Assembly: GCA_913058395.1 (NCBI GenBank)
Contig: CAJXQI010000004.1
Coordinates: forward strand, 1-64,000
Reading direction: 5' to 3'
From: an uncultured Colwellia sp.
GTDB lineage: Bacteria; Pseudomonadota; Gammaproteobacteria; Enterobacterales; Alteromonadaceae
DNA length: 64,000 nucleotides
In this document: positions 163-18,532 of the stretch, piece by piece
Position numbering within the stretch: position 1 is the stretch's first letter
How the letters are laid out: every line of letters begins with the position of its first letter
Translations under genes and position numbers: made by a program
The notes under the pieces: model-generated
The model's database searches: none
Told to the model about the DNA's origin: nothing
What the model saw: the letters and a program-made list of their open reading frames with translations, nothing else

Positions 163-402
163 GCCGCTGGTAGTGTGGGACTTGTTCTCTGCTATGTGAA
201 ATCGCTCTTGTGCACCCTCGGTAATTGCTCCTGCATTACTCTACTAACCTACACCCATGTAGGAAATGCACTGGCGGAATTAGTAATTCCTTTACGTCAG
301 TAGGACACAACTCATTGCCATACTCAGCATCGTTGCATTAGAGCATCCATGCGCGTCAAAAGCTCGTTACTGATGTGACGGACTTTTTGCTGTTTGGCGT
401 TT
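163..402 (+). repeat. Decayed duplicate of 5S end plus terminator, split by a structured repeat
   Basis: Bases 164-180 match bases 1-17 of the 5S tail at 16 of 17 positions. Bases 358-402 match the terminator and its downstream flank (59-104) with few changes, two of which fall in the stem and weaken it. Between these half-copies lie about 175 bases unrelated to rRNA. Within them, 217-271 closely resembles 18323-18379, and there are several short hairpins, at 248-263, 276-290 and 343-352. The simplest reading is a second, degenerate 5S unit that received a repeat element. Confidence 0.7.
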
Positions 403-456
403 AAATAACACTCTTAAGCAAATCAAATATATTTTTACATAGCTAACGAAAATCAA

Positions 457-497
457 CCTCCCACCTTTAATTACTTTAGTAAAGTGGAGTTTTTTTA
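457..497 (+). terminator. Terminator-like hairpin upstream of ylqF
   Basis: An imperfect stem with CTCCCACCTTTA on the left and TAAAGTGGAG on the right contains a perfect inner ACTTTA/TAAAGT hairpin. It is followed by seven T residues. It could end read-through from the rRNA operon or from an unannotated short transcript. Confidence 0.45.
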
Positions 498-637
498 GAA
501 TCAAAGTGTTTAGATAATTAAACAGAACATGCTCTGTATTGAGTTGATATTAATTTAATATTTGTATTCGGCAGCTTTTAACTTTTATCAGTGATAAAAT
601 CTAGCTTATATTATTGAATAGTTATTAAAGACTTATT

Positions 638-1570
638 ATGGCGATTAATTGGTTCCCAGGGCATATGCATAAAGCCCAGAAAGAGATTAAAGAAATTTTA
701 CCGCAAATTGATGTGGTGATTGAAGTTTGTGATGCTCGTTTACCTTTTAGTAGCGAAAACCCGATGATCACGGAAATTCGTGGTGACAAACCTTTAATAA
801 AAATTTTAAATAAGTCAGATTTAGCTGATCCTAAAATTACTGAACTATGGCTTAGCCACTTAGAATCTCAGCACAACGTGAAAGCTATCGCACTAACGAC
901 TGAGACACCATCAGTAGCTAAAACTATTCCTGCTTTAATTCGAAAGTTGGTTCCTAGTAAAGACGAAGCAGGCAAGCAAATTAATGCTGTTATTGTCGGT
1001 ATTCCAAATGTCGGTAAATCTACTCTATTAAACACGCTTGTTGGTAAAGCTAAAGCCAAAGTAGGCAATGAGCCTGCTGTTACCAAAGGCCAACAAAGAA
1101 TACGTTTAGAAGATGGTTTATATTTATATGATACCCCTGGCATGCTTTGGCCTAAAATAGTGAATCAAAATAGTGGTTATCGATTAGCGGTTACTAGTGC
1201 GGTTAAAGATACTGCATTTGATCACGAAGAGATTGCCTGCTTTGCTGCTGAATATTTATTAGAAGCTTACCCTGAACGCTTAAAAGAACGTTACAAGATT
1301 GAAGAGCTGCCTGAACAAGAGGTTGAGCTAATTGAAGCTCTTGGTAAGCGTAGAGGCTGTGTAAGAAGTGGTGGCCATATCGATTTCCATAAAGCCTCAG
1401 AGATTTTAATTAACGAGATCCGGGATAAAACATTAGGCGGCATAACGTTTGAAACACCTGAAATGGTGGCTAAAGAAATAGTTCATTTTGAAAAGGTTGA
1501 AGCAGATAAAGTTGCTGCGCGAGAAGCTAAAAAATTAGCACGTGGTAGAGGGCGCCGTAATAAGCGCTAA
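638..1570 (+). CDS. ylqF: Ribosome biogenesis GTPase YlqF/RbgA family
   Basis: This is a circularly permuted GTPase of the YlqF/RbgA type, which in Bacillus acts late in 50S ribosomal subunit assembly. The permuted motif order is visible. G4 NKSD lies at about residues 58-61, before G1 GIPNVGKST (121-129), then the G2 threonine near 149 and G3 DTPG (165-168). The N-terminal NWFPGHM segment is typical of the family, and the C-terminus is strongly basic (RGRGRRNKR), consistent with rRNA contact. The 310-residue length is normal. The gene is the first after the rRNA operon, and the HIT gene follows 25 bases downstream, probably in the same transcript. Confidence 0.93.
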   Translation: MAINWFPGHMHKAQKEIKEILPQIDVVIEVCDARLPFSSENPMITEIRGDKPLIKILNKSDLADPKITELWLSHLESQHNVKAIALTTETPSVAKTIPALIRKLVPSKDEAGKQINAVIVGIPNVGKSTLLNTLVGKAKAKVGNEPAVTKGQQRIRLEDGLYLYDTPGMLWPKIVNQNSGYRLAVTSAVKDTAFDHEEIACFAAEYLLEAYPERLKERYKIEELPEQEVELIEALGKRRGCVRSGGHIDFHKASEILINEIRDKTLGGITFETPEMVAKEIVHFEKVEADKVAAREAKKLARGRGRRNKR

Positions 1571-1595
1571 TATGTATAACTTACAAGGTATTAAT

Positions 1596-2027
1596 ATGAA
1601 TTCAGAATTTGTTTTACACCCACAATTAGCAAATGATTGTTTTGTTATTACTGACTTTCCGTTGTCGCGTTTACTATTATGCAATGATAGTGCGTATCCT
1701 TGGTTTATATTGGTACCTAAAGTTGACAATGTTCAAGATGTTTACCAATTAGATTGGCAGGACCAACAACAATTATTAAATGAGTCTAGCATGCTTAGTG
1801 AAGTGCTGATGCAAGAGTTTAATGGCGATAAAATGAATGTAGCTGCATTAGGTAATGTTGTACCTCAACTGCATCTTCACCATGTTGTTCGTTATAAAAC
1901 TGATCCTTGTTGGCCTAAGCCCATTTGGGGGCAACAAGCATTGACGCCTTATAGTGATGCAGAGCTTATTGAAGTAAAAGAGCGTTTAATGCCTAAATTG
2001 ACAGCGATACTTGCTAGTAAAAACTAA
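1596..2027 (+). CDS. HIT domain protein
   Basis: A 143-residue histidine-triad family protein, predicted to act as a nucleotide hydrolase or transferase in the cytoplasm. The triad region reads QLHLHH at residues 91-96, so Gln replaces the first His of the HxHxH motif. This variant is common in proteobacterial HIT proteins. The ATG at 1596 was chosen because AAGGT lies just upstream and the protein then starts MNSEFVLHPQL. Longer frames starting at 1542 or 1572 overlap or abut ylqF and add unconserved residues. The substrate is unknown. Confidence 0.85.
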   Translation: MNSEFVLHPQLANDCFVITDFPLSRLLLCNDSAYPWFILVPKVDNVQDVYQLDWQDQQQLLNESSMLSEVLMQEFNGDKMNVAALGNVVPQLHLHHVVRYKTDPCWPKPIWGQQALTPYSDAELIEVKERLMPKLTAILASKN

Positions 2028-2061
2028 ACTAATCGAAACAAAATTAATGCACTAGTATTTT

Positions 2062-2102
2062 CTTATCTCCCATTACTTATTGATTAAGTAGAGGGAGATA
2101 AG
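2062..2102. repeat. Long inverted repeat between convergent genes
   Basis: CTTATCTCCC (2062-2071) pairs with GGGAGATAAG (2093-2102), and an inner TACTTA/TAAGTA pair extends the stem. It sits between the convergent HIT gene and megL. No clear T-run follows on either strand, so it may be an mRNA-end hairpin rather than a canonical terminator. Confidence 0.55.
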
Positions 2103-2142
2103 CCGTCACGGTTATTTGAATAAAAAGCCTAATCTATAGCAA

Positions 2143-3354
2143 CTACGCAACAGCTCTTTTATCTGCAGCAACTTCAATTAATGTTAATGATTGTTCCAAG
2201 TCAGCCAATAGATCTTCTACATTCTCTAAGCCAACAGATATTCTGATCAGACTGTCGCTGATACCAGCAGCTAATCGTTCTTCTTGTGTATAAGGCGAGT
2301 GTGTCATTGATGCGGGGTGCTGAATAAGTGACTCTGCATCACCTAAACTTACTGCAATAGAAAATAGCTTCATTCGGTTAATAAATTCACTGCCACCTGC
2401 TAAATCACTATCAATTTCAAAAGCAATAACACCACCAGCAGCTTTCATTTGTTCACCGATATATTTATTACCTGCATGGCTCTTTAGCCCAGGGTAATAA
2501 ACTTTAGATACTTTAGGATGCTGTTCTAAAAATTCAGCAAGCTTTTGTGCATTATTGCAATGACGTTCCATGCGGATAGGTAAGGTTTTTAGGCCTCGCA
2601 TAATTAACCATGCATCATGTGGGCTAATAGTAGCGCCAATATCTTTTAATACTGTCATTTTGATATTCATGATCATTTCGCTGCTGCCACAAATAATACC
2701 TGCAACCACATCACCATGGCCATTAAGATATTTAGTAGCGCTATGAACAACAATGTCGATGCCGTATTTTTTAGGCTGCTGCAATACAGGCGTTAAAAAA
2801 GTGTTGTCGACAATCGAGATGATTTCATGCTTTTGAGCTATTTTTCCAATAGCAGCTAAATCATATACTTCAAGGTTGGGATTTACCGGGGTTTCTAGGA
2901 AAATAACTTTGGTATTTGGTTTTATTGCCGCTTCAACTTCTTCTGGATTTGCCATATCTACAAAGCTAACTTCAATTCCCCACCGTGTTAGTTGGTGGTT
3001 CATCAAAGCAAAAGAACAACCATAAACTGCTTTTGAAGAAATTAAATGATCACCACAAGATAAATTAGCCAACAAAGCTCCTGAAACTGCGCCCATGCCA
3101 GTTGCAGTCGCGGCTGCGTCTTCCATATCTTCCATTGCAGCAACGCGCATTTCTAATTGCCTGGTTGTTGGGTTACCCAAACGACTATAGATATAACCAT
3201 CTGCTTCACCTGCGAATCTATCTGCGCCTTGTTGTGCGTTTTCAAAAATAAACGTTGAGGTTTGATAAAGCGGTGTAGCTAATGAGCCAAATTGTTCATC
3301 GTTAATACGACCAGAGTGAATCGCTTGAGTTTCGATATGCTTACTGTCAGACAT
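2143..3354 (-). CDS. megL: Methionine gamma-lyase (trans-sulfuration family)
   Basis: A 403-residue PLP enzyme of the Cys/Met metabolism family. It probably splits L-methionine into methanethiol, 2-oxobutyrate and ammonia. The PLP lysine is in SATKYLNG (about K208). The segment YGCSFAL places a cysteine at about residue 113, equivalent to the Cys116 characteristic of methionine gamma-lyases rather than cystathionine lyases. The N-terminal TRQLE and YSRLGNPT substrate and cofactor segments are intact. The gene is divergent from tyrR. The shared intergenic region carries palindromes of TyrR-box type, so TyrR may control it. Cystathionine gamma-lyase is the main alternative. Confidence 0.85.
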   Translation of the reverse strand: MSDSKHIETQAIHSGRINDEQFGSLATPLYQTSTFIFENAQQGADRFAGEADGYIYSRLGNPTTRQLEMRVAAMEDMEDAAATATGMGAVSGALLANLSCGDHLISSKAVYGCSFALMNHQLTRWGIEVSFVDMANPEEVEAAIKPNTKVIFLETPVNPNLEVYDLAAIGKIAQKHEIISIVDNTFLTPVLQQPKKYGIDIVVHSATKYLNGHGDVVAGIICGSSEMIMNIKMTVLKDIGATISPHDAWLIMRGLKTLPIRMERHCNNAQKLAEFLEQHPKVSKVYYPGLKSHAGNKYIGEQMKAAGGVIAFEIDSDLAGGSEFINRMKLFSIAVSLGDAESLIQHPASMTHSPYTQEERLAAGISDSLIRISVGLENVEDLLADLEQSLTLIEVAADKRAVA

Positions 3355-3510
3355 AATTTTCCTTCTCTTTCGATATTATTGTTTTTGTTATAACCGCACT
3401 AATGCGTTATTGAATTTGCTAATAATCAGTATTAGCAAAAAGGCTGCCATTATTTATAACTTATAAAAATCAATCGGTTACGATTTATTGGTTTTAAGTT
3501 TATATATTTT

Positions 3511-3528
3511 TGTAATAAAATAATTACA
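3511..3528. promoter_or_regulatory. TyrR-box-like palindrome (distal)
   Basis: TGTAAT-N6-ATTACA, a perfect palindrome that keeps the invariant G and C of the TyrR consensus TGTAAA-N6-TTTACA. It lies in the megL/tyrR divergent region, about 157 bases upstream of megL and 151 upstream of the tyrR start. Identification rests on motif similarity and on the adjacent tyrR gene. Confidence 0.6.
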
Positions 3529-3622
3529 ACGGCGTGGTTGTAAGGTTAAAGCTATGCGTCTAGATACAACTTTTTAGTGAGTTTTTGCAGAATTTTACGG
3601 TATTTAGGGTGTTTTTGTTTGT

Positions 3623-3659
3623 TGTAATAGTTATGGTACATTGTAATTAATCTATTACA
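3623..3659. promoter_or_regulatory. Tandem TyrR-box-like sites before tyrR
   Basis: Two adjacent sites with the same start-to-start spacing as their width plus one base: a weaker TGTAAT-N6-GGTACA at 3623-3640 and a perfect TGTAAT-N6-ATTACA at 3642-3659. A strong/weak pair next to each other is the arrangement TyrR uses for repression in E. coli. The strong site ends 19 bases before the tyrR start codon, which suggests autoregulation. Confidence 0.65.
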
Positions 3660-3678
3660 TTTGATTAGAAAGTATATT

Positions 3679-5238
3679 ATGCGTATCGAAATAGCGTCAG
3701 AAGATAGAATTGGTATAAGTCAGGAAATTTTAGCTGCACTCACGTTACTTAAGCTTGATATAAGCGCTATGGAAGTCGCTACTCAGCGTATATTCGTGCA
3801 CCTTGCAAGTACTGATATAAGCTTTGCTGATATTGAAAAAGCATTATTAGGTATTTTGGGAGTTAATCATTGTCGAACGATTGATTCATTACCTGCAGAA
3901 AGTCGAGAACGGCATTTAAGAGCATTATTAAATCGCTTACCTGATGCGATTATAGATATTGATGAAAGTGCCCGTGTGATGGCGTTGAATTTGGCAGGTG
4001 AAAAATTGTTAATTGCCCATCAGAAAAGCAAAGGCGTAGATCCTACATCTGTGACTAAGCTAAAAGGCTCTCAAGTTACCAGTTTACTTGATATCGAAAT
4101 AGAACAACCGTTACTTGATAAAGTGAGTTCGCAAAGTATTGATATTGCGGGGCAAAGTTATATCGCTGAAATTAGTCCAATAAGCGAAAATGAAAGTAAC
4201 TCAGGGGCGGTAATATCGCTAAAGTCGATAAGCCGATTAGGTCGACAAATTGCTATTATACAAACCCGTGATGAGCAGGGTATCGACCATATCATCGGCC
4301 ATTCTGCGAGTATTCAACTATTAAAAGAGCAAACAACTCGATTTGCTGAGTTAGACTTACCTGTATTGATTAATGGTGAAACAGGGACCGGTAAAGAACT
4401 TGTTGCTAGAGCACTACATAATGCAAGCTACCGCCATCGTGCGCCGTTTCTTGCGGTCAATTGTGCGGCACTACCTGAGCATTTGTTAGAAAGTGAACTT
4501 TTTGGCTATGCCACGGGCGCATTTACCGGAGCGCAAAAAGGTGGCAAGCCAGGACTTTTTGAATTGGCTGAAGGCGGTACGGTATTCTTAGATGAAATTG
4601 CTGAAATGTCGCCTTATTTACAAGCTAAATTATTACGTTTCTTGCAAGACTTTAAATACCGCCGTTTAGGCGGTACTAAAGAGTTGCATGCAAATGTACG
4701 CATTGTAAGTGCTACCCATCAAAATTTGCTGAGTATGATCGCCAAACAGCAATTTAGGGAAGATTTGTTTTATCGTCTTAATGTCTTAAATTTAAGTTCA
4801 CCACCTTTACGGGAGCGTTCGGAAGATATTACGCTATTAGCTGAACACTTTGTAATATTGGCAGCTAATCAAATGAATTTACAACAGCCAATGATCGACC
4901 GTGCAGCAATGCAATTGTTAGTTTCATTTCCTTGGCCAGGTAATATTCGAGAGTTGCAGAATGTTTTGTTTCGCGCGGTTGCATTAAATGGGGATGGTGA
5001 TATTTCTTCTCAAGATATATCTATTGCGCTTGCACAATTTACCCAAAATGATACTAGCACTGATGCTGTTATTGAAAATGAAGTGAGTAACTGGGCGAGT
5101 GCGCAAGCGCAGTTTGAAAGAAAACTAATTACCGATTTATATCCACACTATCCAACGACACGTAAACTTGCTGAACGACTACAGGTCTCGCACAACAAAA
5201 TTGCTATGAAGTTAAGACAGTTTGATATTAAGTTATAG
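3679..5238 (+). CDS. tyrR: TyrR-type aromatic amino acid regulator (sigma54-type AAA+)
   Basis: A transcription regulator of 519 residues with the TyrR layout: N-terminal ACT domain (about 1-70), PAS-like domain (75-190), AAA+ domain (205-435) and a C-terminal helix-turn-helix. The ending HYPTTRKLAERLQVSHNKIA closely follows E. coli TyrR. Walker A GETGTGKE is at about 233-240. Unlike E. coli TyrR, a full GAFTGA loop (about 280-285) is present, as in sigma54 activators such as PhhR, so this protein may activate sigma54 promoters as well as repress. The ATG at 3679 was chosen because it gives the family N-terminus MRIEI. An in-frame TTG at 3661 is less likely. Confidence 0.88.
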   Translation: MRIEIASEDRIGISQEILAALTLLKLDISAMEVATQRIFVHLASTDISFADIEKALLGILGVNHCRTIDSLPAESRERHLRALLNRLPDAIIDIDESARVMALNLAGEKLLIAHQKSKGVDPTSVTKLKGSQVTSLLDIEIEQPLLDKVSSQSIDIAGQSYIAEISPISENESNSGAVISLKSISRLGRQIAIIQTRDEQGIDHIIGHSASIQLLKEQTTRFAELDLPVLINGETGTGKELVARALHNASYRHRAPFLAVNCAALPEHLLESELFGYATGAFTGAQKGGKPGLFELAEGGTVFLDEIAEMSPYLQAKLLRFLQDFKYRRLGGTKELHANVRIVSATHQNLLSMIAKQQFREDLFYRLNVLNLSSPPLRERSEDITLLAEHFVILAANQMNLQQPMIDRAAMQLLVSFPWPGNIRELQNVLFRAVALNGDGDISSQDISIALAQFTQNDTSTDAVIENEVSNWASAQAQFERKLITDLYPHYPTTRKLAERLQVSHNKIAMKLRQFDIKL

Positions 5239-5272
5239 GTGCTGATACCAAACTGTCTTTAATTATTGTTGT

Positions 5273-6061
5273 TTAATCTTCTAATATTTTGTAAAGAATT
5301 TTTTTAACGTTTTGTGGCTCAAAAGGTTTGTCACACATTGCAGTGACGCCTTCTGTTAGGATATTTGCTAAGTGAGTGTCATTGCTTTCACTTGTGACCA
5401 TTAATATCGGTAAATGTGATTGCTCACTCTCGTTTCTTATATATTTTGTTAGCTCTTTGCCATCGACTTCTGGCATATTGTAATCAGTAACGACTAAATC
5501 ATACATATTGTCTTTTAATAACGTAATAGCCTCGCTACCATCAACAGCTTCAGTAACTTTTAGCAGGCCCAAATTGTTTAATACTCGCTTAATATGGTTT
5601 CGAGCCAAGCGACTATCGTCGACTAATAATACTCTAACTTCATGAACATCAAAATATTCTAGCTCAAGCTCATCTGTAGAAAGCAAATCAATAGTGGTAT
5701 TAATAGCGGTTGCTAAATGGTCGGGAGTGAAAGGCTTTGGTAATAGAGCAATAACCCCTGACTGCTTAAACTCTTCTAAAAGTTCACGGCGATGCTCGCT
5801 AGTTACTAGCATAAAAGGGGTATCAGAAATTGCCGGGTTATTTCTAACTTTCTTCAATAAGTCGATTGCCGTGCCATCATCAAAATACATTGCGCTGGTA
5901 ATGAGATCTCGAGGGTGTGTTTCAACGCTAGCATAAGCTTCGGCTATACTTTTAGCCTCTGAAACGTGGGTGATACCTTGCTGCTTTAGTTGTTTTATAA
6001 TAATTTTTCTTTGTAAATCAGAAGGCTCAACAACCAGTAAGGATAATTCATTTGGATTCAT
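5273..6061 (-). CDS. Double receiver-domain response regulator, first domain degenerate
   Basis: A 262-residue cytoplasmic protein with two CheY-like receiver domains and no output domain. The second (about 143-262) has all key residues: the acidic pair D148/D149, phospho-acceptor D193 in TDYNMPEVDG, and a KPF lysine near 243. The first (about 5-125) has EP instead of the acidic pair and Ser/Ala where the phospho-acceptor Asp should be (ITSAMYFDDG), yet keeps the KPF lysine. It is therefore probably not phosphorylated and may serve protein contacts. The partner kinase is not nearby. A chemotaxis-like or phosphorelay adaptor role is an inference. Confidence 0.85.
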   Translation of the reverse strand: MNPNELSLLVVEPSDLQRKIIIKQLKQQGITHVSEAKSIAEAYASVETHPRDLITSAMYFDDGTAIDLLKKVRNNPAISDTPFMLVTSEHRRELLEEFKQSGVIALLPKPFTPDHLATAINTTIDLLSTDELELEYFDVHEVRVLLVDDSRLARNHIKRVLNNLGLLKVTEAVDGSEAITLLKDNMYDLVVTDYNMPEVDGKELTKYIRNESEQSHLPILMVTSESNDTHLANILTEGVTAMCDKPFEPQNVKKILYKILED

Positions 6062-6098
6062 AATATGACTCAGTATTTTTTATCGGAGAATGTTTTAT

Positions 6099-6497
6099 CT
6101 AGCCGCCAATAAACTTGACTTTAAAACCGTTTTTTTCAAGCACTAATTTTATTTCTTCGCGTTTATCACCCTGAATTTCGATGACTTCACCAACAACGCT
6201 GCCACCAGTGCCACAAGTTTTTTTTAATTTTTTGGCTAGCTCTTTTAGTGCTTTGTCATCAAGGCCAAGACCCGAAATGGTAATAACACCTTTACCTTTT
6301 CGACCTTTAGTTTCACGACGAACTTTTGCAAAACCGTCTGACGCTGTTACCGTTTTCTCGACAGCCTGCTTAATTCTCCCTTGTGAGGTTGAATAAACCA
6401 AAGCTTCGTCATTACTGTTCACTGAGCTGTTGTCGTTATCGATACTTTTGCCAAAGGCGCCTGCTAAATCACTAAGGCTAGAAAATGTTTTTGTCAT
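6099..6497 (-). CDS. yciH: SUI1/YciH family translation factor
   Basis: A 132-residue protein with a C-terminal SUI1 domain (about 60-132). It shows the basic RRETKGRKGKGVITISGL segment and the KKTCGTGGSV and IQGD motifs typical of bacterial YciH, a relative of eukaryotic eIF1 that affects initiation fidelity. The N-terminal 55 residues are low-complexity and Ser/Asn/Asp rich. It lies between the double-receiver gene and etfA on the same strand, with a terminator hairpin separating it from etfA. Confidence 0.9.
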   Translation of the reverse strand: MTKTFSSLSDLAGAFGKSIDNDNSSVNSNDEALVYSTSQGRIKQAVEKTVTASDGFAKVRRETKGRKGKGVITISGLGLDDKALKELAKKLKKTCGTGGSVVGEVIEIQGDKREEIKLVLEKNGFKVKFIGG

Positions 6498-6528
6498 AAT
6501 AGACTCTAATCACCAAATTTTAGATAAA

Positions 6529-6558
6529 ATAAAACCACTACAAGAGTGGTTTTATTAT
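6529..6558 (-). terminator. Terminator after etfA
   Basis: AAAACCACT pairs with AGTGGTTTT around a five-base loop, followed on the minus strand by TTTTATTT. It lies 30 bases after the etfA stop codon and before yciH. Confidence 0.65.
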
Positions 6559-6586
6559 ACATGATTTTTGAGGTGAGAATATTAGC

Positions 6587-8498: not shown

Positions 8499-8501
8499 AA
8501 A

Positions 8502-10201: not shown

Positions 10202-10242
10202 TTGGCTAGTTAGTTAACTGTTTTTAGTACATCGTCACTCTT

Positions 10243-10256
10243 TCGCATCCATGCGA
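10243..10256. repeat. CATCCATG mini-hairpin (repeat family member)
   Basis: TCGCATCCATGCGA is a perfect palindromic hairpin with the core CATCCATG. The same core with different but always self-complementary arms appears near 343 and several times at 18176-18370. It lies between the ETF-QO stop and its terminator. Confidence 0.6.
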
Positions 10257-10283
10257 TCGTGATATACCGTTCATTCTGAACAT

Positions 10284-10311
10284 AAAAAGCCTGCAATTGC
10301 AGGCTTTTTAT
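10284..10311. terminator. Bidirectional terminator between ETF-QO and yggN
   Basis: AAAAAGCCTGC pairs with GCAGGCTTTTT around a very short AATT turn, with T-runs available on both strands. It separates two convergent genes. Confidence 0.85.
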
Positions 10312-10329
10312 CTTTCTACACACATAAGG

Positions 10330-11103: not shown

Positions 11104-11162
11104 GGCAAACTCCATATCTTTAAATAATAGTGACAACTAAAGTAAAAAGTCGAGTTGAAATT

Positions 11163-12848
11163 TTACGTTGTAACAATAGGATCTACATGAATTTTTCGTT
11201 CTTTATAAATCAGGCGGCTCGGGCCATATTCACGACGGGTTCTATCATGAAACTCACCGACGTTAAGTTGAACGCCATGATATACTTTTTCAGTTGCCTC
11301 TACATAGACACTAGCCATATATTCTTGCAACGTTTCTTCAAGTGCTTCTTTTTTGTTTAAGTATTTACCCATACTTTTAGCATGATGTTGGTAAGTAGAA
11401 ATTACTTTACTTAACATCTCTGGCTTAGCTTTATCTTTTGGTAGCTTTTTAAGCTTATTAATCGCTACTTTTAGTTCAGTTGTTTTATCTGATTCTACAG
11501 TTACTAATTCATCAGCGTCAGCAATTTGGTCTAGATATTGATTTACTTTATCTTGAAAAGAGATAATTGTTGTACTACCAGCTGTTGCGCCTACGGTACC
11601 TGCTCTTACTGACTCTCCCGCACGAATATAGCCTGCAATAAGTTTACCGTTTGCTTTTTCTTCAGTGCCTACCCACAAGGTTGTCGCAACTTTGACAATA
11701 TTGTGCATTAATTGATTTTCAATGCGTAAAGAAGCACAATTTATTTCAGCATATTGGCTATACTTGGCAAAAACCTTTCCGCCAGCTCTAATGTTGGCGC
11801 TCATATTAATTTGAGACGCATCAAGATCTTCAACTTCTTGTTTTTTACCTATAATACCGGTACCAATAGTAATATCTCCACCAGCTTCTAAAGTGGCTGA
11901 TTCAACAAAACCGCCAATAGATATATCGCCAGTAGCATGAACTTTCATGCCTTCGCATACATCACCATCAATTATGACGCTGCCCTGGAAATCGACATGG
12001 CCAGTACTAATATCAACATTTTTGATTTGGTATATATTGTCCACTTCCATACCATTTTCAATGATTCTTGGCAGGCCAACTAATGTGGACACTAATATGC
12101 TGTTATTTTTTGGGCTTAATGCTGTGCCATCACCAACATGCATATTTAAATCTTCACCCGGCGTAGGTTCTAATATATCACCAATAACAGTATAACCTTT
12201 GATACCGTTGGTTAGAGGGATTTTTTGCGCTAGTGGGTCCCCAACTTTGACACAAATAATGTCGCCTAGGTCACGCATGTCAACACTACCGTCTTCACGC
12301 TTTTTAGGTTTTAAAATTCTATCTTGAGCGCTCTCTACTAGTAGTTTTATTCGAGAATCTTTGCCATCAATAGGCATTTTTCCTTGGGCAATTTCGCCTT
12401 TAACTAGGGAGCCTGCAGGTTCTTTCGCGGCTTGCTTGGCAAGTACTATCAATTGCTCTTTACTAAAACCTTTAGTAACTCCAGCATCCTGAGCTGCATT
12501 TAAGATTGCTTTGGCGCTCATATGCTTACCACCTAATGCAGTCGATATTTCGGCACTGGCAGACATATTGTCATTTTCTATACGTATTGAGACCGTGGCA
12601 TCGCGGCGTTCAAGTATTTGATAGGTTATTTCGCGGCCAGTTTGATTTTCTTGTAATGGTTTCAATACGCTATTTAATTCGGCAATAGCATTTTTAACGC
12701 TGCCATTATCAACATATAAATTACTAAATTCAGAACTCTGTATTAATTCGTGAATGCTTACTTCAGTTAAAAGTGTTTTTGTTTTAACAGGAGACAATAC
12801 TAGGTCTATGTTATTTTTATTATTCGCTACTAAATTTGCCTTACTCAC
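11163..12848 (-). CDS. FapA-family (DUF342) polymer-forming protein
   Basis: A 561-residue protein of the FapA/DUF342 family. Family landmarks are visible: ILNAAQDAGV, GKDSRIKLLVESA, GDPLAQKIPLTNGIKGYTVIG, and a long central stretch of short glycine-rich turns (DVCEGMKVHATGDISIGG, LEAGGDITIGTGIIG, NIRAGGKVFAKY) predicted to form a right-handed beta-helix. A coiled-coil-like helical region follows (about 440-530). Vibrio FapA influences flagellar and glucose-linked regulation, but the role here is not shown. It follows a 108-residue unknown protein by 40 bases on the same strand and precedes yggN, so the three may be co-transcribed. Confidence 0.85.
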   Translation of the reverse strand: MSKANLVANNKNNIDLVLSPVKTKTLLTEVSIHELIQSSEFSNLYVDNGSVKNAIAELNSVLKPLQENQTGREITYQILERRDATVSIRIENDNMSASAEISTALGGKHMSAKAILNAAQDAGVTKGFSKEQLIVLAKQAAKEPAGSLVKGEIAQGKMPIDGKDSRIKLLVESAQDRILKPKKREDGSVDMRDLGDIICVKVGDPLAQKIPLTNGIKGYTVIGDILEPTPGEDLNMHVGDGTALSPKNNSILVSTLVGLPRIIENGMEVDNIYQIKNVDISTGHVDFQGSVIIDGDVCEGMKVHATGDISIGGFVESATLEAGGDITIGTGIIGKKQEVEDLDASQINMSANIRAGGKVFAKYSQYAEINCASLRIENQLMHNIVKVATTLWVGTEEKANGKLIAGYIRAGESVRAGTVGATAGSTTIISFQDKVNQYLDQIADADELVTVESDKTTELKVAINKLKKLPKDKAKPEMLSKVISTYQHHAKSMGKYLNKKEALEETLQEYMASVYVEATEKVYHGVQLNVGEFHDRTRREYGPSRLIYKERKIHVDPIVTT

Positions 12849-12888
12849 ACTTGTATAACTCCATTACGTTGCAAAATTCAGGTATGCC

Positions 12889-13215
12889 TTAAATATAGTT
12901 TTCCTGATGGACTTTGATAAAGCTTGGGGTACCTACTTTTGAATAATCAATTTTGTATTCTTTATTATCCATTGCTTGCACAAAAATTAAGGTTTTCTCT
13001 TCACCAAAAATCTCAGTCATACTGACATCAACAACCTCTTGATAAGCTTTCTTCGCTTCAGAGCGTTTTTTAGGAACAATACCTTTATATAAACCCATAC
13101 CGACATTACTCACTATAACAATAGGGTGGATGCCATTAACCACGAGTAGATCAATTTTTTTGTTTTTATGGATGATGGTATTTCGACCACTGGTTATATA
13201 ATTTTTATCAATCAA
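12889..13215 (-). CDS. Conserved hypothetical protein upstream of the FapA-like gene
   Basis: A 108-residue protein that I do not recognise. It has no signal peptide or membrane segment. The middle is hydrophobic and beta-like (KKIDLLVVNGIHPIVIVSNVGMG) and the second half is charged. The start is a TTG, supported by a strong AAGGAGA Shine-Dalgarno sequence six bases upstream. An ATG inside that spacer is out of frame and stops at once. It is probably the first gene of a transcript with the FapA-like gene. Confidence 0.65.
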   Translation of the reverse strand: MIDKNYITSGRNTIIHKNKKIDLLVVNGIHPIVIVSNVGMGLYKGIVPKKRSEAKKAYQEVVDVSMTEIFGEEKTLIFVQAMDNKEYKIDYSKVGTPSFIKVHQENYI

Positions 13216-13425
13216 AACATTCTCCTTCTAAGCATCAGCTACTAAGCTGTTTGATAATTATAACGGTTGTCGTAACATTTTTCCTCGTGCACTAATGAAT
13301 TTTCAATTGGTTAGTACATATAAGATGCTGACGACTAAGATTCAATTGAATCAAATATATAAAGATTTGAATTACTAAGCAATATAAAAGCCATCTACTG
13401 CAAGAATAATGGGTTGAAATTAGTT

Positions 13426-14700
13426 TTATTTATCATAATAAGCTGAATTGTTACTATTTATTAACATTCTACGAATTAAATCTAGGCTGCGTGCAGCTAC
13501 AACTTGTTGAAAATATTTTCTTGCGACAGGAATACAGTAATATTTTGCCTGTATTTTATTTTTGTCTCCCCATGCAATCCATACAGAACCAACGGGTTTA
13601 TCTTCTGTACCACCGTCAGGACCAGCGATACCTGAAACCGCAATGGTAAAGTCTGCATCAGAATTTATTAAAGCACCTTGCGCCATTGCTAAAACGGTTG
13701 CTTCACTGACAGCGCCATGTTTAATAAGGGTTGTAACAGGCACACCAAGCATTTTACTTTTCATTTCATTTGAATAAGTAACAAAACCAGCTTCAAATAT
13801 GGCCGACGCTCCCGCTATTGCAGTAATTTGACTGGCAATTAAACCACCCGTACATGATTCCGCCACGGTGATTTTTTGTTTTGATTCTATTAGCAGTGGC
13901 ACAAGGTAGTCGGCAATAGTGGAGTTTTCATTGGCACCTGTGCCTAAAATGTGCGCATCTAATAGTGAGGTTAATTTTTCTAACCATTGTGGTAGTAATA
14001 CTTGGCCTTTTTCACAGCAAGTTATTAGTTTTAATTCGAGAATTGGCATTGCAGCCCGAAAGCCAATAGTTATTTCGTTTGGCCAATCGGGAAAGGTACT
14101 ATTAATTAACGCTTGCAGGTTAGATTCACCAATCCCAAAAAGATGCAGCCGGGCTATCTCATTATGTTTAGGAGCAGAAAAGCTTTTAATTAGCGACGGT
14201 ACTATTTCTTCCTTTAGCATATGAGTTAATTCACTTGGCACGCCAGGTGTACAGATAATAAGGCATTGGTTAAATTCAACACTAAAACCGACTGCACTAC
14301 CTGTTTTATTGGCTATTACAGTGCTATTTTCTGGCAGGTAGGCTTGTTTTAAATTAGGTGCATTTAATACGGTTTTCCTTTTTTCAGCCCATAATTTTAG
14401 GTGTTGATGAGCTTGTTGATGAAGCACTAAGTTAACACTACACGCAGTTGCTAGCACTTGAGCTGTTAAATCGTCTACCGTTGGTCCAAGGCCGCCATTT
14501 ATGATTAACACGTCTGACCCTTGGCTGAGCTGTGCAATTTCTATCGCAAGCAAGTCTTGGTCATCACCAATAGTGACTTTTTTATCAATACTCAAGCCAA
14601 TGTCATTCAAATGCTCAGCAAATATTACTGAATTGGTGTCAGTGACGTCACCATTCATTAATTCACTGCCGGTTAGAAGTAAACTTACTTTTGTCTTCAT
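13426..14700 (-). CDS. cinA: CinA family protein (NMN deamidase / ADP-ribose pyrophosphatase)
   Basis: A 424-residue full-length CinA. The N-terminal COG1058 (MoCF-like) domain shows LTGSELMNGDVTDTNS, IINGGLGPTVDDLT and the CTPGVPSEL motif. The C-terminal PncC domain (about 255-415) shows VAESCTGGLIASQITAIAGAS, FVTYSNEMKSKMLGV and the catalytic-region motif SGIAGPDGG. PncC-type proteins deamidate nicotinamide mononucleotide for NAD recycling. Length and domain order are normal. The gene is divergent from the DUF4097 gene, across a region that holds a hexanucleotide repeat. Confidence 0.93.
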   Translation of the reverse strand: MKTKVSLLLTGSELMNGDVTDTNSVIFAEHLNDIGLSIDKKVTIGDDQDLLAIEIAQLSQGSDVLIINGGLGPTVDDLTAQVLATACSVNLVLHQQAHQHLKLWAEKRKTVLNAPNLKQAYLPENSTVIANKTGSAVGFSVEFNQCLIICTPGVPSELTHMLKEEIVPSLIKSFSAPKHNEIARLHLFGIGESNLQALINSTFPDWPNEITIGFRAAMPILELKLITCCEKGQVLLPQWLEKLTSLLDAHILGTGANENSTIADYLVPLLIESKQKITVAESCTGGLIASQITAIAGASAIFEAGFVTYSNEMKSKMLGVPVTTLIKHGAVSEATVLAMAQGALINSDADFTIAVSGIAGPDGGTEDKPVGSVWIAWGDKNKIQAKYYCIPVARKYFQQVVAARSLDLIRRMLINSNNSAYYDK

Positions 14701-14790
14701 AGTGCAACTAATCTCGATATTATTTAGTCTCGTTATAGTAGCTAAAAACTGTTGGTATTACCTTGAATATAAAATGATATTTTTTAACTG

Positions 14791-14826
14791 TTTTAATTTT
14801 AATTTTAATTTTAATTTTAATTTTAA
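14791..14826. repeat. Hexanucleotide tandem repeat (TTTTAA)x6
   Basis: Six perfect TTTTAA units in a row, flanked by near-copies (TTTTTAACTG before, TTTGTTTTAAAC after). The repeat lies in the divergent region between cinA and the DUF4097 gene, about 90 bases from each start codon. Slippage could change promoter spacing. Confidence 0.85.
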
Positions 14827-14914
14827 TTTGTTTTAAACCTTTTTGATTAATTGAGTTACTAACTAGTTAAACAATAATGATTCGATAGCAATAATCAAAA
14901 TACTAGGAAATATT

Positions 14915-15682
14915 ATGCGAACTTCTTTTATAAAATTAATTTCAACTACCAGCGTTATCACTTTACTAAGCTTATCAGCGTATGCTGATGTGACTGACGA
15001 AATTGAAAAATCGTTTGATGTTAATGAAAACGCTTCGTTTAGACTTGATAACGTTAATGGCTCAGTGCAAATATCTTCTTGGGATAGAGCTGAGATAAGA
15101 GTGGTTGCAAACATTACTGCCGATAACCAAGACGATAGAGAAAATATTGTGGTGGATATGCAGCAAACCTCAGTTGGAGTTGCCGTTAAAACTCGTTATA
15201 AAGAGCGTGAAAAGTGGGGCCAAAACAGTAACTCGGGTAAAGTTGAATACACTGTTACTGTGCCAAGTGGTATCTCATTATCAGCTATTGATTTAGTCAA
15301 CGGTTCACTGAAAATTGATGGCGTAAAAGGTGAGGTTAATGCAGAACTTGTTAATGGTTCAATTAAGGCGCACGGTTTAGCAAGTAACAGTGAATTTAGT
15401 TCAGTTAATGGCAGCATTAAAATTACTTATGATGAGTTTGCAAAAGAGTTAGACCGCATTGATGTTGAAACGGTAAATGGTAGTATTAAAGTGTCAGTGC
15501 CTAAATCACTTAGTGCGACCGTAAATGCTGAAACTATGCATGGTAGTATTAAAACCGATTTTGGCTTAGTAGCTGAGAAAAACATGTTTACCGGAAGGCA
15601 TTTAAGTGGTGATGTTGGTAATGGCGACATAAAAATCACCATGGAAAGTGTAAATGGCAGTGTTAAATTAATGAGCCATTAA
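14915..15682 (+). CDS. DUF4097-type exported beta-repeat protein
   Basis: A 255-residue secreted or periplasmic protein with a signal peptide (MRTSFIKLISTTSVITLLSLSAYA). The mature part is a run of short beta-strand repeats marked by a recurring (V/M)(N/H)GS(I/V/L)(K/Q) motif, present about eight times, as in DUF4097 (adhesin-like, predicted beta-helix) proteins. No catalytic residues stand out. AGGA upstream supports the start. A terminator follows, so the gene appears monocistronic. The function is unknown; related proteins are often linked to envelope regulation. Confidence 0.8.
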   Translation: MRTSFIKLISTTSVITLLSLSAYADVTDEIEKSFDVNENASFRLDNVNGSVQISSWDRAEIRVVANITADNQDDRENIVVDMQQTSVGVAVKTRYKEREKWGQNSNSGKVEYTVTVPSGISLSAIDLVNGSLKIDGVKGEVNAELVNGSIKAHGLASNSEFSSVNGSIKITYDEFAKELDRIDVETVNGSIKVSVPKSLSATVNAETMHGSIKTDFGLVAEKNMFTGRHLSGDVGNGDIKITMESVNGSVKLMSH

Positions 15683-15744
15683 ACTCTGTGTATAGCATTA
15701 TTTTATATGTGCTGAAGCTAAGTGAGTAATTAGTTTGATAACCG

Positions 15745-15773
15745 AAAAAAGCGAGTCATAACTCGCTTTTTTT
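15745..15773 (+). terminator. Terminator after the DUF4097 gene
   Basis: AAAAAAGCGAGT pairs with ACTCGCTTTTTT around a four-base loop, ending in a seven-base T-run. It lies 63 bases after the stop codon. Confidence 0.85.
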
Positions 15774-15848
15774 AATTCCATTATTTGGCTAATATATTTC
15801 GCGATTTAAGCGTATAATGGAGGTAAGTGAGCTTTTCTGGATTTTCAA

Positions 15849-16640
15849 TTGAAACAAGTTATAAATACTAAACGATTGATTGTATTTATTCGATACATAA
15901 TAGCTTGTTGCTACCTTTCAATAAGCACCTCTCAGGCACAGGAATACATAATTGGCGTTGAAGATATTAGTTATTCCCCCTTGTATGATTTCGCGCAAAA
16001 ACCCTATAAAGAAAGTTTTACGAAAGAGTTATTAAGCACTTTTTTCCGGCATAAAGGTTATCAATTTAAGTTTGTAGCATTACCATTAAAACGTTTTGAT
16101 AAATGGTATACCGAAGATGCAATTGATTTTAAGTTTCCTGATAATATCCGCTGGCGTAGTGAGCAATCTAATAACTTAAATATTTCTTATAGTCAGCCTG
16201 TTATTCATTTAGTGGCCGGTTCATATGTCTTAAAGAATAATAATAGTAAACCTGAAAGTATGACTAGCCTAGGCACTATTTTAGGTTTTTTTCCAACACT
16301 TTGGTATGACAAAATTAAGTCAGGGACTGTTGAATTAGTTGAGGTTACTTCGCCTTACAGTCTTATTAAACATTTATTGCGTGGTAATGTAGATGTCACC
16401 AATATTGATAAAAATGTTATTAATTATAATTTGAAATTGTTAGGAAAAAAAAGCAATGACATTGTACTTAATGAAGACATTAAGAATGAGCCATATGCTT
16501 ACCATTTTTCATCGATAAACCATCCCGGAATTATCAAGGAATTTGACGAATTCCTAAATGAAAATCCTAAAGTCATTGCTCGTATTAAAACGAAATACAG
16601 CATAATAGAAGCAGATCCTGCCAAATACCATAATCAATAA
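15849..16640 (+). CDS. Periplasmic solute-binding protein, family 3-like
   Basis: A protein of about 263 residues with an N-terminal export signal (IVFIRYIIACCYLSISTSQAQ) followed by a type-2 periplasmic binding fold typical of SBP_bac_3-like proteins: EYIIGVEDISYSPLYDF, a KELLSTFFRHKGYQFKFVALPLKR segment and a late NEPYAYHFSS. No transporter genes adjoin it, so it may be a stand-alone sensor or binding protein. The start is uncertain. The frame opens after a TGA at 15828, and TTG at 15849 is the only common start that keeps the signal peptide. A TATAAT at 15813-15818 could be its promoter. Confidence 0.7.
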   Translation: MKQVINTKRLIVFIRYIIACCYLSISTSQAQEYIIGVEDISYSPLYDFAQKPYKESFTKELLSTFFRHKGYQFKFVALPLKRFDKWYTEDAIDFKFPDNIRWRSEQSNNLNISYSQPVIHLVAGSYVLKNNNSKPESMTSLGTILGFFPTLWYDKIKSGTVELVEVTSPYSLIKHLLRGNVDVTNIDKNVINYNLKLLGKKSNDIVLNEDIKNEPYAYHFSSINHPGIIKEFDEFLNENPKVIARIKTKYSIIEADPAKYHNQ

Positions 16641-16661
16641 TTTATAGAGAGTTTCATACGT

Positions 16662-17057
16662 ATGACAGATCAAATCGAGTGCTATCATCGATCCTTCTTA
16701 TTTGGCAAATGGTATCGAAGTGAACATGATGAAGCAGGCAATGCTTTTACTGAATATGCACAATTGTCAGACGATGGTCATTACGAGTTCACTTTTATCC
16801 AACATGATGATGTTGGTAACATTAGTGAGCAAACAGTTGAGTCTGGTGATTGGGGACTTGTTGGCGATATTCACTTTACCATCAGTAAAAGTGAATTTAT
16901 TGATAAAGAGCATTATGCCGCAGACTTAACCCATGAAGATAACTATCATGCTTATCGCGTATTAACCTTAAATAGTCAAATATTCGAATATCAGCATATC
17001 TTAACTAATGAAGTGTTTATCCTACGCCGAGTTATTGATAATATCGCACTCAGTTGA
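16662..17057 (+). CDS. Hypothetical protein
   Basis: A 131-residue protein that I do not recognise. It is acidic, lacks a signal peptide or membrane segment, and reads like an all-beta fold with alternating hydrophobic strands (FGKWYRS, YEFTFIQHD, GDWGLVGDIHFTIS, FEYQHILTNEVFILRR). This pattern is reminiscent of a lipocalin-like barrel, but that is only an impression. It follows the solute-binding gene by 21 bases and precedes dapA by about 60 on the same strand, so the three might be co-transcribed. Confidence 0.7.
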   Translation: MTDQIECYHRSFLFGKWYRSEHDEAGNAFTEYAQLSDDGHYEFTFIQHDDVGNISEQTVESGDWGLVGDIHFTISKSEFIDKEHYAADLTHEDNYHAYRVLTLNSQIFEYQHILTNEVFILRRVIDNIALS

Positions 17058-17120
17058 GACCTAAGTTAAAGTCCACATACTTATTACCCGTTTATATTAA
17101 TTATCTTGTTGAGAATTCGA

Positions 17121-18029
17121 ATGAAGCAAATTAAAGCCGCCAGTTTAATTACTGCGATTAAAACACCGTTTAACGCAAAGGGTGACATTGATTTTAATAC
17201 GTATGATCAATTAGTCGCTGAACAAGTAAAAGCTGGTGTTGATGGTATTGTTGTTGGTGGCACGACTGGTGAAGGGCACTTACTAACTTGGGAAGAACAT
17301 TTAATTCTTATTGCCCACAGTGTTCATAAACACGGTAAAGACTTATTAATTATTGGTAATACGGGTAGCAACAATACGCGTGAAGCGATAAAAGCAACAC
17401 AACATGGTTTCGCAACAGGTATGGACGCAGCACTGCAAATTAATCCATATTATGGTCGCAGCTCTTTTGCTGGCGTTAGCGCACACTTTGAAAAAGTGCT
17501 CGATATTGGTCCGGCATTTATCTACAACGTGCCAGGTCGAACTGGACAAGATTTAACGCCAGACTTAATTGAACCGCTTTCAAAACACAAGAATTTTATT
17601 GGTGTTAAAGAATGTGCCGGTAATGATCGTATTGCTTATTATGAAGAGCGTGGCATTGCTTGTTGGTCAGGAAACGATGACCAATGTGCAGTAGGGCGTC
17701 ATCAACATGGCTCACATGGTGTTATTTCAGTAACTTCTAATATAGTGCCTGGCTTAATGCGAAAATTAATGGATACGCCAAACGAAGCATTAGACACGCG
17801 CATGCAACCGTTAATGAGTTGGCTGTTTTGCGAGCCAAATCCAATTGCGATTAACACCACTTTGATGATGACTGCAGCGGTCGCGCCTATTTTTAGAATG
17901 CCTTATAAAGCATTAACTAAAGCGCAACGTGAAGAAGGTTTAGCGTTATTATCTGAACTATCTCAAGATGAACTTGTTGGTGATAAATTAAACTTAATGG
18001 CTGACGAAGATTTTCATTATAGCTATTAA
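17121..18029 (+). CDS. dapA: 4-hydroxy-tetrahydrodipicolinate synthase
   Basis: A 302-residue class I aldolase-fold enzyme that condenses pyruvate with aspartate semialdehyde in lysine and diaminopimelate synthesis. It shows the GGTTGEG pyruvate-binding motif, the tyrosine of YNVPGRTG and the Schiff-base lysine in FIGVKECAG. The N-terminus AASLITAIKTPF and the LTWEEHL segment resemble plant-type DapA rather than E. coli DapA. The ATG at 17121 gives the family N-terminus. The frame also opens at a TTG at 17106, which is less likely. A terminator hairpin follows. Confidence 0.92.
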   Translation: MKQIKAASLITAIKTPFNAKGDIDFNTYDQLVAEQVKAGVDGIVVGGTTGEGHLLTWEEHLILIAHSVHKHGKDLLIIGNTGSNNTREAIKATQHGFATGMDAALQINPYYGRSSFAGVSAHFEKVLDIGPAFIYNVPGRTGQDLTPDLIEPLSKHKNFIGVKECAGNDRIAYYEERGIACWSGNDDQCAVGRHQHGSHGVISVTSNIVPGLMRKLMDTPNEALDTRMQPLMSWLFCEPNPIAINTTLMMTAAVAPIFRMPYKALTKAQREEGLALLSELSQDELVGDKLNLMADEDFHYSY

Positions 18030-18096
18030 TAATCGTTATTAGTGACACTACTAGTAACGGCTGTTAATTAATGAAGATGGCTATTTTTAATATATA

Positions 18097-18125
18097 AACA
18101 GTGAGCTTTGACTCACTGTTTTTTA
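18097..18125 (+). terminator. Terminator after dapA
   Basis: AAACAGTGAG pairs with CTCACTGTTT around a six-base loop, followed by a T-run. It lies 68 bases after the dapA stop. Confidence 0.85.
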
Positions 18126-18132
18126 TGTTCAG

Positions 18133-18282
18133 GATGAACGGTCAGTTTTTTTGTTCCAGACAAAAACTAAGTACCTGCATCCATGCAAGCAATGTCACGG
18201 TGCCATGACCGTTTTTAGGCATCCTGCCTTCACGGCATTAATACATCCGTGTATGTCGAAGGCAAAGAATGACGATGTTCAG
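18133..18282. repeat. 150-bp structured direct repeat, copy 1
   Basis: This 150-base segment recurs exactly 250 bases downstream with only two differences (18260 and 18269). It contains a nested set of hairpins: TTTTTGT/ACAAAAA with a TCCAG loop, TGCATCCATGCA, ACGGT/ACCGT, AGGCA-TCC-TGCCT and ATACATCCGTGTAT. A longer pairing of AACGGTCA (18137-18144) with TGACCGTT (18206-18213) encloses the first three. No coding gene is supported here. Confidence 0.9.
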
Positions 18283-18382
18283 GCCGTTCTTAGCCATCCA
18301 TGGCTTCACGGCATTATTGCATCTCGGTAATTGCTCCATGCATTACTCTAATAACTTACATCCATGTAAGAACATGCACGTT
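18283..18382. repeat. Spacer between the direct repeats, with element shared with the rRNA locus
   Basis: A 100-base spacer with the hairpins AGCCATCCATGGCT (18292-18305) and CTTACATCCATGTAAG (18355-18370). Bases 18323-18379 match 217-271 near the rRNA tail at about 51 of 57 aligned positions. In the hairpin, one base pair is C-G in one copy and T-A in the other, so pairing is preserved. Confidence 0.8.
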
Positions 18383-18532
18383 GATGAACGGTCAGTTTTT
18401 TTGTTCCAGACAAAAACTAAGTACCTGCATCCATGCAAGCAATGTCACGGTGCCATGACCGTTTTTAGGCATCCTGCCTTCACGGCATTAATACATCCGT
18501 GTATGTCGATGGCAAAGAGTGACGATGTTCAG
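18383..18532. repeat. 150-bp structured direct repeat, copy 2
   Basis: Second copy of the repeat at 18133-18282, 148 of 150 bases identical, with the same hairpin set. It ends about 40 bases before the stop codon of the convergent pseudouridine synthase gene. A 100-codon frame crosses this block but is not a credible gene. Confidence 0.9.

What the first reader, a model, noticed from the sequence alone, without database searches (positions are those of the whole stretch)
163..18532. Intergenic family of mini-hairpins with a constant CA-TCC-(A)TG core and variable but self-complementary arms
I found these in the intergenic DNA: GCATCCATGC (343-352), TCGCATCCATGCGA (10243-10256), TGCATCCATGCA (18176-18187 and 18426-18437), AGCCATCCATGGCT (18292-18305), CTTACATCCATGTAAG (18355-18370), CCTACACCCATGTAGG (248-263), ATACATCCGTGTAT (18241-18254 and its copy) and AGGCATCCTGCCT (18217-18229 and its copy). 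The loop is near-constant while the arms differ, yet each arm pairs with its partner. Random decay of one ancestor would destroy pairing, so either pairing is selected or arms are copied during spread. This could be a non-autonomous repeat, a protein-binding hairpin code, or an RNA-end structure.
Basis: partly seen in the sequence, partly recalled or inferred. Interest (0 to 1): 0.72.

Follow-up and report, generated by a model that had tools for sequence, protein, structure and literature searches.

The report
CsrA-like hairpin repeats behind transcription terminators
Many marine bacteria carry dozens of tiny DNA repeats placed just after the stop signals of genes, each shaped like a pair of hairpins that resemble the docking sites of a global RNA-binding regulator; how they spread and whether they act on that regulator remains to be tested.

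Summary
The hairpins are real and far beyond chance, but they are parts of something larger. In the genome stretches read, 25 of 56 CATCCATG cores have 3 or more extra paired bases, against 2.5% of other CANNNNTG cores. Many belong to a ~52-nt unit or to composite arrays containing it. On the complementary strand the unit reads AT-GTWC-AGGAU-GWAC-GGTA-[stem]-GR-[4 bp]-ANGGAU-[4 bp]-ARGA-[stem]. First units follow the T-run and stem of a terminator in 21 of 22, 44 of 50 and 6 of 9 cases in three sets, against 2-4% of intergenic control positions. The own genome has 47 unit hits at E<=1e-3; 48 of 321 sampled genomes of the class have some. Ten of 13 stem pairs show compensatory change. Most loops are GGA loops of the CsrA/RsmE type. 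Orthologous sites show terminators with and without the unit, changes of unit number, block replacement and decay. Y1 transposase, reverse transcriptase and integron integrase (over cut-off) are missing from the own genome. Most likely a terminator-targeted dispersed repeat with dual CsrA-type hairpins; CsrA binding and the mover are inferred.

The parts
10228..10283 (-). single S unit (hp1 + composite hp2), GGA strand is minus
   Evidence: R1 hit E 1.1e-17 (G000:C4:10228-10283:-; the unit is one of the 11 used to build R1, so it matches by construction); alignment A1
10269..10281 (-). hp1 palindrome; its loop here has lost GGA (CAGAATG)
   Evidence: sequence
10243..10256 (-). hp2 inner hairpin, loop CATGGATG on the minus strand
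10284..10309 (.). two-way terminator-like stem next to the S unit, present also in relatives that lack the unit
   Evidence: by eye
18097..18124 (+). terminator-like stem and T-tract after the ORF 17106-18029 (+)
   Evidence: sequence, by eye
18127..18139 (+). hp1 directly after that T-tract, GGA on plus
   Evidence: weak R1 hit 18125-18173, E 0.006
18133..18549 (.). composite array: two 167-nt direct copies 250 nt apart (95% identical) with inverted L-type hairpins, GGA on minus
   Evidence: hairpins
18176..18187 (-). L-type hairpin TGCATCCATGCA (second copy 18426-18437)
18217..18229 (-). hairpin AGGCATCCTGCCT (copy 18467-18479)
18241..18254 (-). hairpin ATACATCCGTGTAT (copy 18491-18504)
18292..18305 (-). 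hairpin AGCCATCCATGGCT inside an outer stem GCCGT/ACGGC
18355..18370 (-). hairpin CTTACATCCATGTAAG
216..263 (.). partial L-type array incl. CCTACACCCATGTAGG (248-263); GGA is lost in that loop
343..352 (.). GCATCCATGC, one extra pair only; possibly chance

Best explanation
The hairpins are pieces of a dispersed, non-coding repeat family. Its basic unit (about 52 nt, here called S) carries two GGA-loop hairpins of the kind that CsrA/RsmA proteins bind, and becomes established directly behind the T-tract of intrinsic terminators, in the sense of the terminated gene; further inverted hairpins (here called L) are added in composite arrays, and most of the window's named hairpins are of this second sort. 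Shown, for the S unit: anatomy, covariation, position after terminators, sites with and without the unit, changes of copy number, patchy distribution. Inferred: (1) the unit is inserted at T-tracts by a mobility system that is not resident now or not recognised, and then grows and shrinks as tandem arrays; (2) when RNA polymerase reads through the terminator, the unit is transcribed as a dual-site CsrA ligand (GGAs 26 nt apart start to start, hairpin stems of about 4 bp), so arrays can act as weak, scattered CsrA decoys; (3) pairing and GGA loops are kept in the spreading lineage, while individual copies drift.
For: Position: of units that fitted an hp1 expression in loci found by covariance model (no T-tract asked), first units follow a T-run plus hairpin in 21 of 22 (30 own loci), 44 of 50 (68 loci of relatives, some orthologous) and 6 of 9 (28 class loci; most did not fit the expression); controls: random windows 14 of 600, 15 of 1360, 7 of 560, random intergenic positions 32 of 1500, positions 30-110 nt after stop codons 30 of 771. 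The upstream gene is on the same strand in 29 of 30 own loci (a few loci share an array) and in 62 of 71 loci with a called upstream gene among 80 of the 118 loci from named genomes (that pattern asked for TTTAT before hp1). Gain: at the ETF-QO 3' end (family by Pfam) in 17 genus genomes the terminator-like stem is shared; by eye 3 have the unit, 1 a remnant, 2 a related hairpin on the other side, 11 nothing recognisable. Structure: in 70 units 95.1% of 910 cells pair, 194 two-sided changes, covariation score 0.530 against 0.156 in shuffles and at most 0.091 when slid. Loops: in hp2, without a loop filter, GGA in 86 of 95 and 40 of 46 units with a stem of 4 bp or more (34 of 129 and 11 of 57 units had no such stem). 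Of 29 hairpins before TAAGTA, 14 have loop GTTCCNG with N = A 8, C 4, T 1, G 1, i.e. NGGA on the other strand, and 4 more keep TCC. CsrA consensus (RUACARGGAUGU; CAGGA(U/A/C)G; ANGGAN hexaloop; mostly four or fewer bp; optimal distance >18 nt) from passages of PMC7652899. One CsrA gene in the genome. The Rfam CsrB model hits one array with 23.9 bits, E 1.9e-4, below its cut-off 71. Spread: 47 own unit hits at E<=1e-3, 17 of 17 genus genomes with 2-47, 28 of 60 genomes (own included), up to 85; 48 of 321 in the class.
Against: Transcription and CsrA binding are untested. G-T pairs are not clearly commoner than A-C on the GGA strand: 15 vs 9 of 910 (p 0.31), 29 vs 16 of 1456 in all 112 regular-register units, 14 vs 14 of 897 in the 69 from named genomes, 28 vs 18 of 819 and 3 vs 4 of 180; an RNA-selected stem would predict more G-T. 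In composite arrays the L hairpins mostly have GGA on the strand opposite to the S unit (by eye), so one transcript cannot use both. Single copies lose the loop without compensation (window 10269-10281 CAGAATG; L213 vs L281). In the window the CC strand folds better than the GGA strand against shuffles in 3 of 3 stretches (z -3.35 vs -0.70, -2.90 vs -2.19, -3.06 vs -1.46). Covariation and placement tests were made on S units, not on L hairpins. No mover identified; no target duplication seen at the 10228 site.
Confidence: 0.55

Rival explanations
1. Pure DNA parasite: a REP/MITE-like element whose hairpins are recognised as single-stranded DNA by a transposase; the GGA loop is that protein's mark and the CsrA resemblance is coincidence.
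For: Dispersed and patchy, 0-85 hits per genome; decay of single copies and block replacement; opposite orientations in arrays as in BIMEs (PMC2817692 passages); no clear G-T excess over A-C. Y1 transposase count has a weak positive rank correlation with unit hits over 60 genomes (rho 0.23, p 0.075).
Against: No Y1 transposase, no RVT_1 and no integron integrase over cut-off in the own genome; G028 (85 hits), G000, G004 and G007 lack Y1, though G006 (47) and G014 (45) have it, and within the genus rho is -0.01. ORF clusters shared between 182 loci: of the 40 largest looked at, the first two coincide with the arrays by position, and 16 of 18 others or neighbours sent to Pfam (two had no family) are ordinary host proteins, none a transposase. 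Different hairpin types share NGGA loops with variable N, which coincidence does not explain well.
Confidence: 0.3
2. Functional 3' structure: the unit backs up the terminator or protects transcript ends, and is kept at each site by selection.
For: Strict position after terminators on the gene's strand; some sites are occupied in several genus genomes, e.g. beside BON- and SIS-domain genes in L231, L233, L234, L238, L250.
Against: Eleven of 17 genomes have the ETF-QO terminator with nothing recognisable beside it; occupied sites decay or are replaced; the downstream gene has either orientation.
Confidence: 0.1
3. Palindrome-perfecting replication errors (template switching) generate matching arms without selection on structure.
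For: Stems are almost all Watson-Crick (850 of 910 cells; 1321 of 1456) with few wobble intermediates.
Against: Does not explain constant loops, the constant internal loop (GR / ARGA) or the terminator placement; orthologous copies read show one-sided changes, not perfecting.
Confidence: 0.05

Closest known systems
TwoAYGGAY RNA (Rfam RF01731, clan CL00106 with CsrB)
   Same: paired hairpins with AYGGAY loops; a tandem GA in one stem and a proposed role as CsrA-binding RNA are reported (PMC4333381 passages); at E<=0.01 in 21 of 36 genomes incl. own, 16 over cut-off
   Different: only 2 own loci reach the Rfam cut-off, and neither is an S unit hit; S hairpin 1 has a 5-nt AGGAU loop; the place behind terminators and dozens of copies are not mentioned in the passages read
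CsrB/RsmZ family sponge RNAs
   Same: many GGA-loop hairpins (CAGGANG, ANGGAN)
   Different: a separate CsrB-like candidate exists at C2:263359-263649 (44.8 bits, below cut-off 71); arrays have GGA hairpins on both strands and no promoter was looked for
REP/BIME palindromes with RAYT
   Same: dispersed intergenic hairpins, composite arrays with opposite orientations, palindromes preserved while sequence varies (PMC2817692 passages)
   Different: no Y1 transposase in the own genome; consensus does not begin with GTAG plus hairpin as the listed REPs mostly do; placed behind terminators
Group IIC (bacterial-C) introns
   Same: insertion immediately after rho-independent terminators (PMC8919778 passages)
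   Different: units of ~52 nt without a recognised intron core; RVT_1 absent from own genome

Membership tests
TwoAYGGAY (RF01731) | covariance model score at or above 43 bits | tested here: not met
   window scan at gathering: 0 hits; own genome hits only C2:163765-163875 and 164150-164267, which are not R1 hits
TwoAYGGAY (RF01731) | two hairpins with AYGGAY loops | tested here: not met
   hp2 loop AUGGAU fits, hp1 loop AGGAU does not
CsrB (RF00018) | score at or above 71 bits | tested here: not met
   best array 23.9 bits
CsrA/RsmE binding site | GGA in a 5-6 nt loop closed by C-G on a short stem (ANGGAN, CAGGANG) | tested here: met
   most S units; consensus
CsrA/RsmE binding site | measured CsrA binding | not testable with these tools
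   no binding or expression data
REP/BIME with RAYT | cognate Y1 transposase in the genome | tested here: not met
   0 in own genome, 5 of 14 control genomes positive; rank correlation with unit hits 0.23 (p 0.075) over 60 genomes, -0.01 within the genus
REP/BIME with RAYT | units in opposite orientations | tested here: inconclusive
   S against L hairpins mostly opposite (by eye); S units among themselves are direct tandems
MITE | terminal inverted repeats and target-site duplication | tested here: inconclusive
   none seen at window 10228-10283 against sites without the unit; flanks differ too much for a clean junction
Group IIC intron | insertion just after an intrinsic terminator | tested here: met
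Group IIC intron | resident reverse transcriptase or intron core | tested here: not met
   RVT_1 0 in own genome; Rfam gathering scan of the window empty
Integron attC | integron integrase in the genome | tested here: not met
   own genome: 3 weak matches, best E 1.7e-6, none over cut-off

The most novel reading that the evidence does not exclude
A mobile RNA-decoy system: terminator-targeted units scatter dual CsrA-binding hairpins behind dozens of genes, so that the pool of CsrA decoy RNA is set by genome-wide terminator read-through, coupling global transcription state to the Csr regulon, with copy number evolving by an unknown insertion mechanism.
Probability: 0.18. Interest if true: 0.88.

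Novelty: new variant of a known kind. Interest (0 to 1): 0.62.

Why it matters
If the units bind CsrA, the Csr network of many Gammaproteobacteria includes a hidden, evolvable set of decoys. If they do not, they are a widespread short repeat that finds terminators without any mover recognised here, which asks for a new insertion mechanism. Either way the family is easy to test: it has a covariance model, sites with and without the unit, and a natural copy-number series from 2 to 47 hits within one genus.

Tried and rejected
Chance: rejected by loop controls and covariation; the cruder loop count did not show it. RAYT/Y1, reverse transcriptase and integron integrase as resident movers: absent from the own genome. 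Autonomous copy with an ORF: all-against-all comparison of ORFs from 182 loci (the 40 largest clusters printed, 16 of their members and two neighbours or window genes sent to Pfam) gave no transposase; smaller clusters and singletons were not examined. Phage or plasmid carriage: 6 viral contigs, none in plasmids or phages with one 68-nt query at E 0.001. Strand test (G-T against A-C) gave no clear answer. In print: searches (listings of the best hits only) showed no paper that describes this unit, and the sequence strings occurred only in papers whose titles and abstracts concern other things; supplements, preprints and most subscription papers are not held. Passages, not whole papers, were read of PMC7652899, PMC4333381, PMC2864571, PMC11701678, PMC8919778 and PMC2817692.

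Limits. The class survey scored 17 candidates per genome, so its counts are lower bounds. A2 holds 70 of 112 units (one per locus, GGA in register): 37 same-genus-survey units and 5 units without a regular hp2 (L119, L122, L152, L164, L191) were left out by eye, which favours its pairing; over all 112 units 1321 of 1456 cells are Watson-Crick and 29 are G-T (92.7% standard pairs), over the 69 from named genomes 806 and 14 of 897. Column pair 21-50 fails in 17 of 70. R1 and R2 hits of units used to build them match by construction. Gene calls are longest-ORF approximations. For 7 of 16 G014 loci no own counterpart was held, so absence there is unknown. The rRNA end at window 1-50 is recalled, not called: Rfam gave no hit.
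Full report
Observation. CATCCATG occurs 8 times in the window, 1.43 expected, and 144 times in the 4.39-Mb genome against 70 for the reversed pattern. The proposed refutation, that arms pair no more than chance, does not hold: 7 of 13 cores in C1:1-300000 and 25 of 56 in all stretches held have at least 3 further pairs, against 2.4-2.5% for other CANNNNTG cores. All 13 hairpin-forming cores of that 300 kb lie outside ORFs of 120 aa or more. A cruder count of 4-nt loops alone in the same 300 kb did not put TCCA among the top 12. GCATCCATGC at 343-352 is the weak member.

Anatomy. S units often repeat in tandem about every 51 nt. Composite arrays add hairpins, here called L, mostly in the opposite orientation: CATCCATG types, a GTTCCNGAC type with long arms followed by TAAGTA, and a GCTCC type. 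The tests below concern S units.

Covariation. In 11 own units 8 of 13 pairs have two-sided changes. In 70 units, most from named genomes of many genera, 10 of 13 do; 194 of 910 cells differ on both sides, 95.1% of cells pair, and the covariation score is 0.530 against 0.156 for shuffles and at most 0.091 for slid registers. The 70 were picked from 112; over all 112 standard pairs make up 92.7% of 1456 cells. Inner arms come in six forms with four or more members, each matched. G-T pairs do not clearly exceed A-C: 15 against 9 in the 70, 29 against 16 in the 112, 14 against 14 in the 69 named-genome units. So the data do not say whether RNA or DNA, or which strand, is under selection.

Place. 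Units in loci found with covariance models, without asking for a T-tract, follow a T-run and a hairpin in 21 of 22, 44 of 50 and 6 of 9 first units. Random windows do so in 14 of 600, 15 of 1360 and 7 of 560, random intergenic positions in 32 of 1500 and positions 30-110 nt after stop codons in 30 of 771. The gene before the terminator is on the same strand in 29 of 30 own loci and in 62 of 71 named loci with a called upstream gene, from 80 of 118 loci examined; the next gene has either orientation. The ETF-QO 3' end (Pfam) in 17 genus genomes shows a shared terminator-like stem with the unit in 3, a remnant in 1, a related hairpin on the other side in 2 and nothing recognisable in 11 (by eye). 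So the terminator is older than the unit there, and the unit comes and goes.

Turnover. Nine of 16 G014 elements lie at the place of an own element (for the other 7 the own region may not be held). Alignments read by eye show unit loss or gain (L194/L282, L198/L289, L212/L283), replacement of both arms in a block (L212/L283, L196/L308), an insertion of about 150 nt inside an array (L192/L279), and one-sided change of stems or loss of GGA (window/L280, L213/L281). Copies seem to drift at their sites while the family as a whole keeps its shape.

Distribution. 47 own unit hits at E<=1e-3 (48 with the laxer search); all 17 genus genomes (2-47); 28 of 60 genomes, own included; one family relative with 85. 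In the class 48 of 321 genomes, a lower bound. Record titles of loci that match the 21-nt end pattern include Colwellia, Cognaticolwellia, Thalassomonas, Rheinheimera, Nitrincola, Marinobacterium, Neptunomonas, Solemya symbionts, Sedimenticola, Pseudohalioglobus and Stenotrophobium; not each of these has a regular hp2. Only 6 viral contigs matched.

What it resembles. The loops are those that CsrA/RsmE proteins bind: the review PMC7652899 (passages) gives RUACARGGAUGU, CAGGA(U/A/C)G in CsrB, ANGGAN hexaloops, mostly four or fewer base pairs, and an optimal distance of more than 18 nt. Here hairpin 1 has CAGGA(T/A/C)G, hairpin 2 has ANGGAN on a 4-bp stem, with the GGAs 26 nt apart. Without filtering on the loop, GGA is in 86 of 95 and 40 of 46 hp2 loops that have a stem, and 14 of 29 hairpins before TAAGTA have GTTCCNG with all four letters at N. 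Rfam's TwoAYGGAY, in one clan with CsrB, has such loops and was proposed to bind CsrA (PMC4333381 passages); the own genome has two copies elsewhere. The S unit does not reach that model's cut-off. The genome has one csrA and a CsrB-like candidate below cut-off. Against an RNA reading, the window's stretches fold better on the CC strand than on the GGA strand relative to shuffles (3 of 3), though two units of other genomes fold well on the GGA strand (z -3.45 and -2.67).

Mover. Y1 transposase, RVT_1 and integron integrase over cut-off are all absent from the own genome. Y1 counts correlate weakly with unit hits over 60 genomes (rho 0.23, p 0.075) and not within the genus (-0.01); RVT_1 does not (0.02; -0.44 within the genus, p 0.078). 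ORFs shared between loci and sent to Pfam are host proteins. Insertion right after terminators is known for group IIC introns (PMC8919778 passages), so the target choice has a precedent but the machinery here is unknown.

Verdict. A real, structured, widespread repeat family, not found described as a unit in the searches made, that looks like a cross between terminator-targeted mobile repeats and CsrA-binding RNA. Family and placement are shown; CsrA binding and the mobility mechanism are inferences.

Noticed in passing
L050:3765-4267 (G000:C2:163765-163875 and 164150-164267): Two TwoAYGGAY RNA copies over the Rfam cut-off in the window's genome, 385 nt apart start to start.
   Followed up: partly
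L072:1501-1791 (G000:C2:263359-263649, minus): Probable CsrB-like sRNA, 44.8 bits (cut-off 71), with 15 GGA on the RNA strand in 291 nt and a terminator-like stem at its end by eye.
   Followed up: partly
window 52-117 and 356-403: A terminator-like stem (recalled as the end of an rRNA operon; no Rfam hit) is repeated about 300 nt further on, with a partial hairpin array between the copies.
   Followed up: no
L332, L346, L347 (G145): A genome of another family has long composite arrays of GGA-loop hairpins, R2 hits in outward pairs 0.6 and 1.5 kb apart; one scores 42.7 bits with TwoAYGGAY, cut-off 43.
   Followed up: partly
L231, L233, L234, L238, L250: One locus beside BON- and SIS-domain genes carries different arrays in five genus genomes, with differing unit numbers and arms.
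   Followed up: partly
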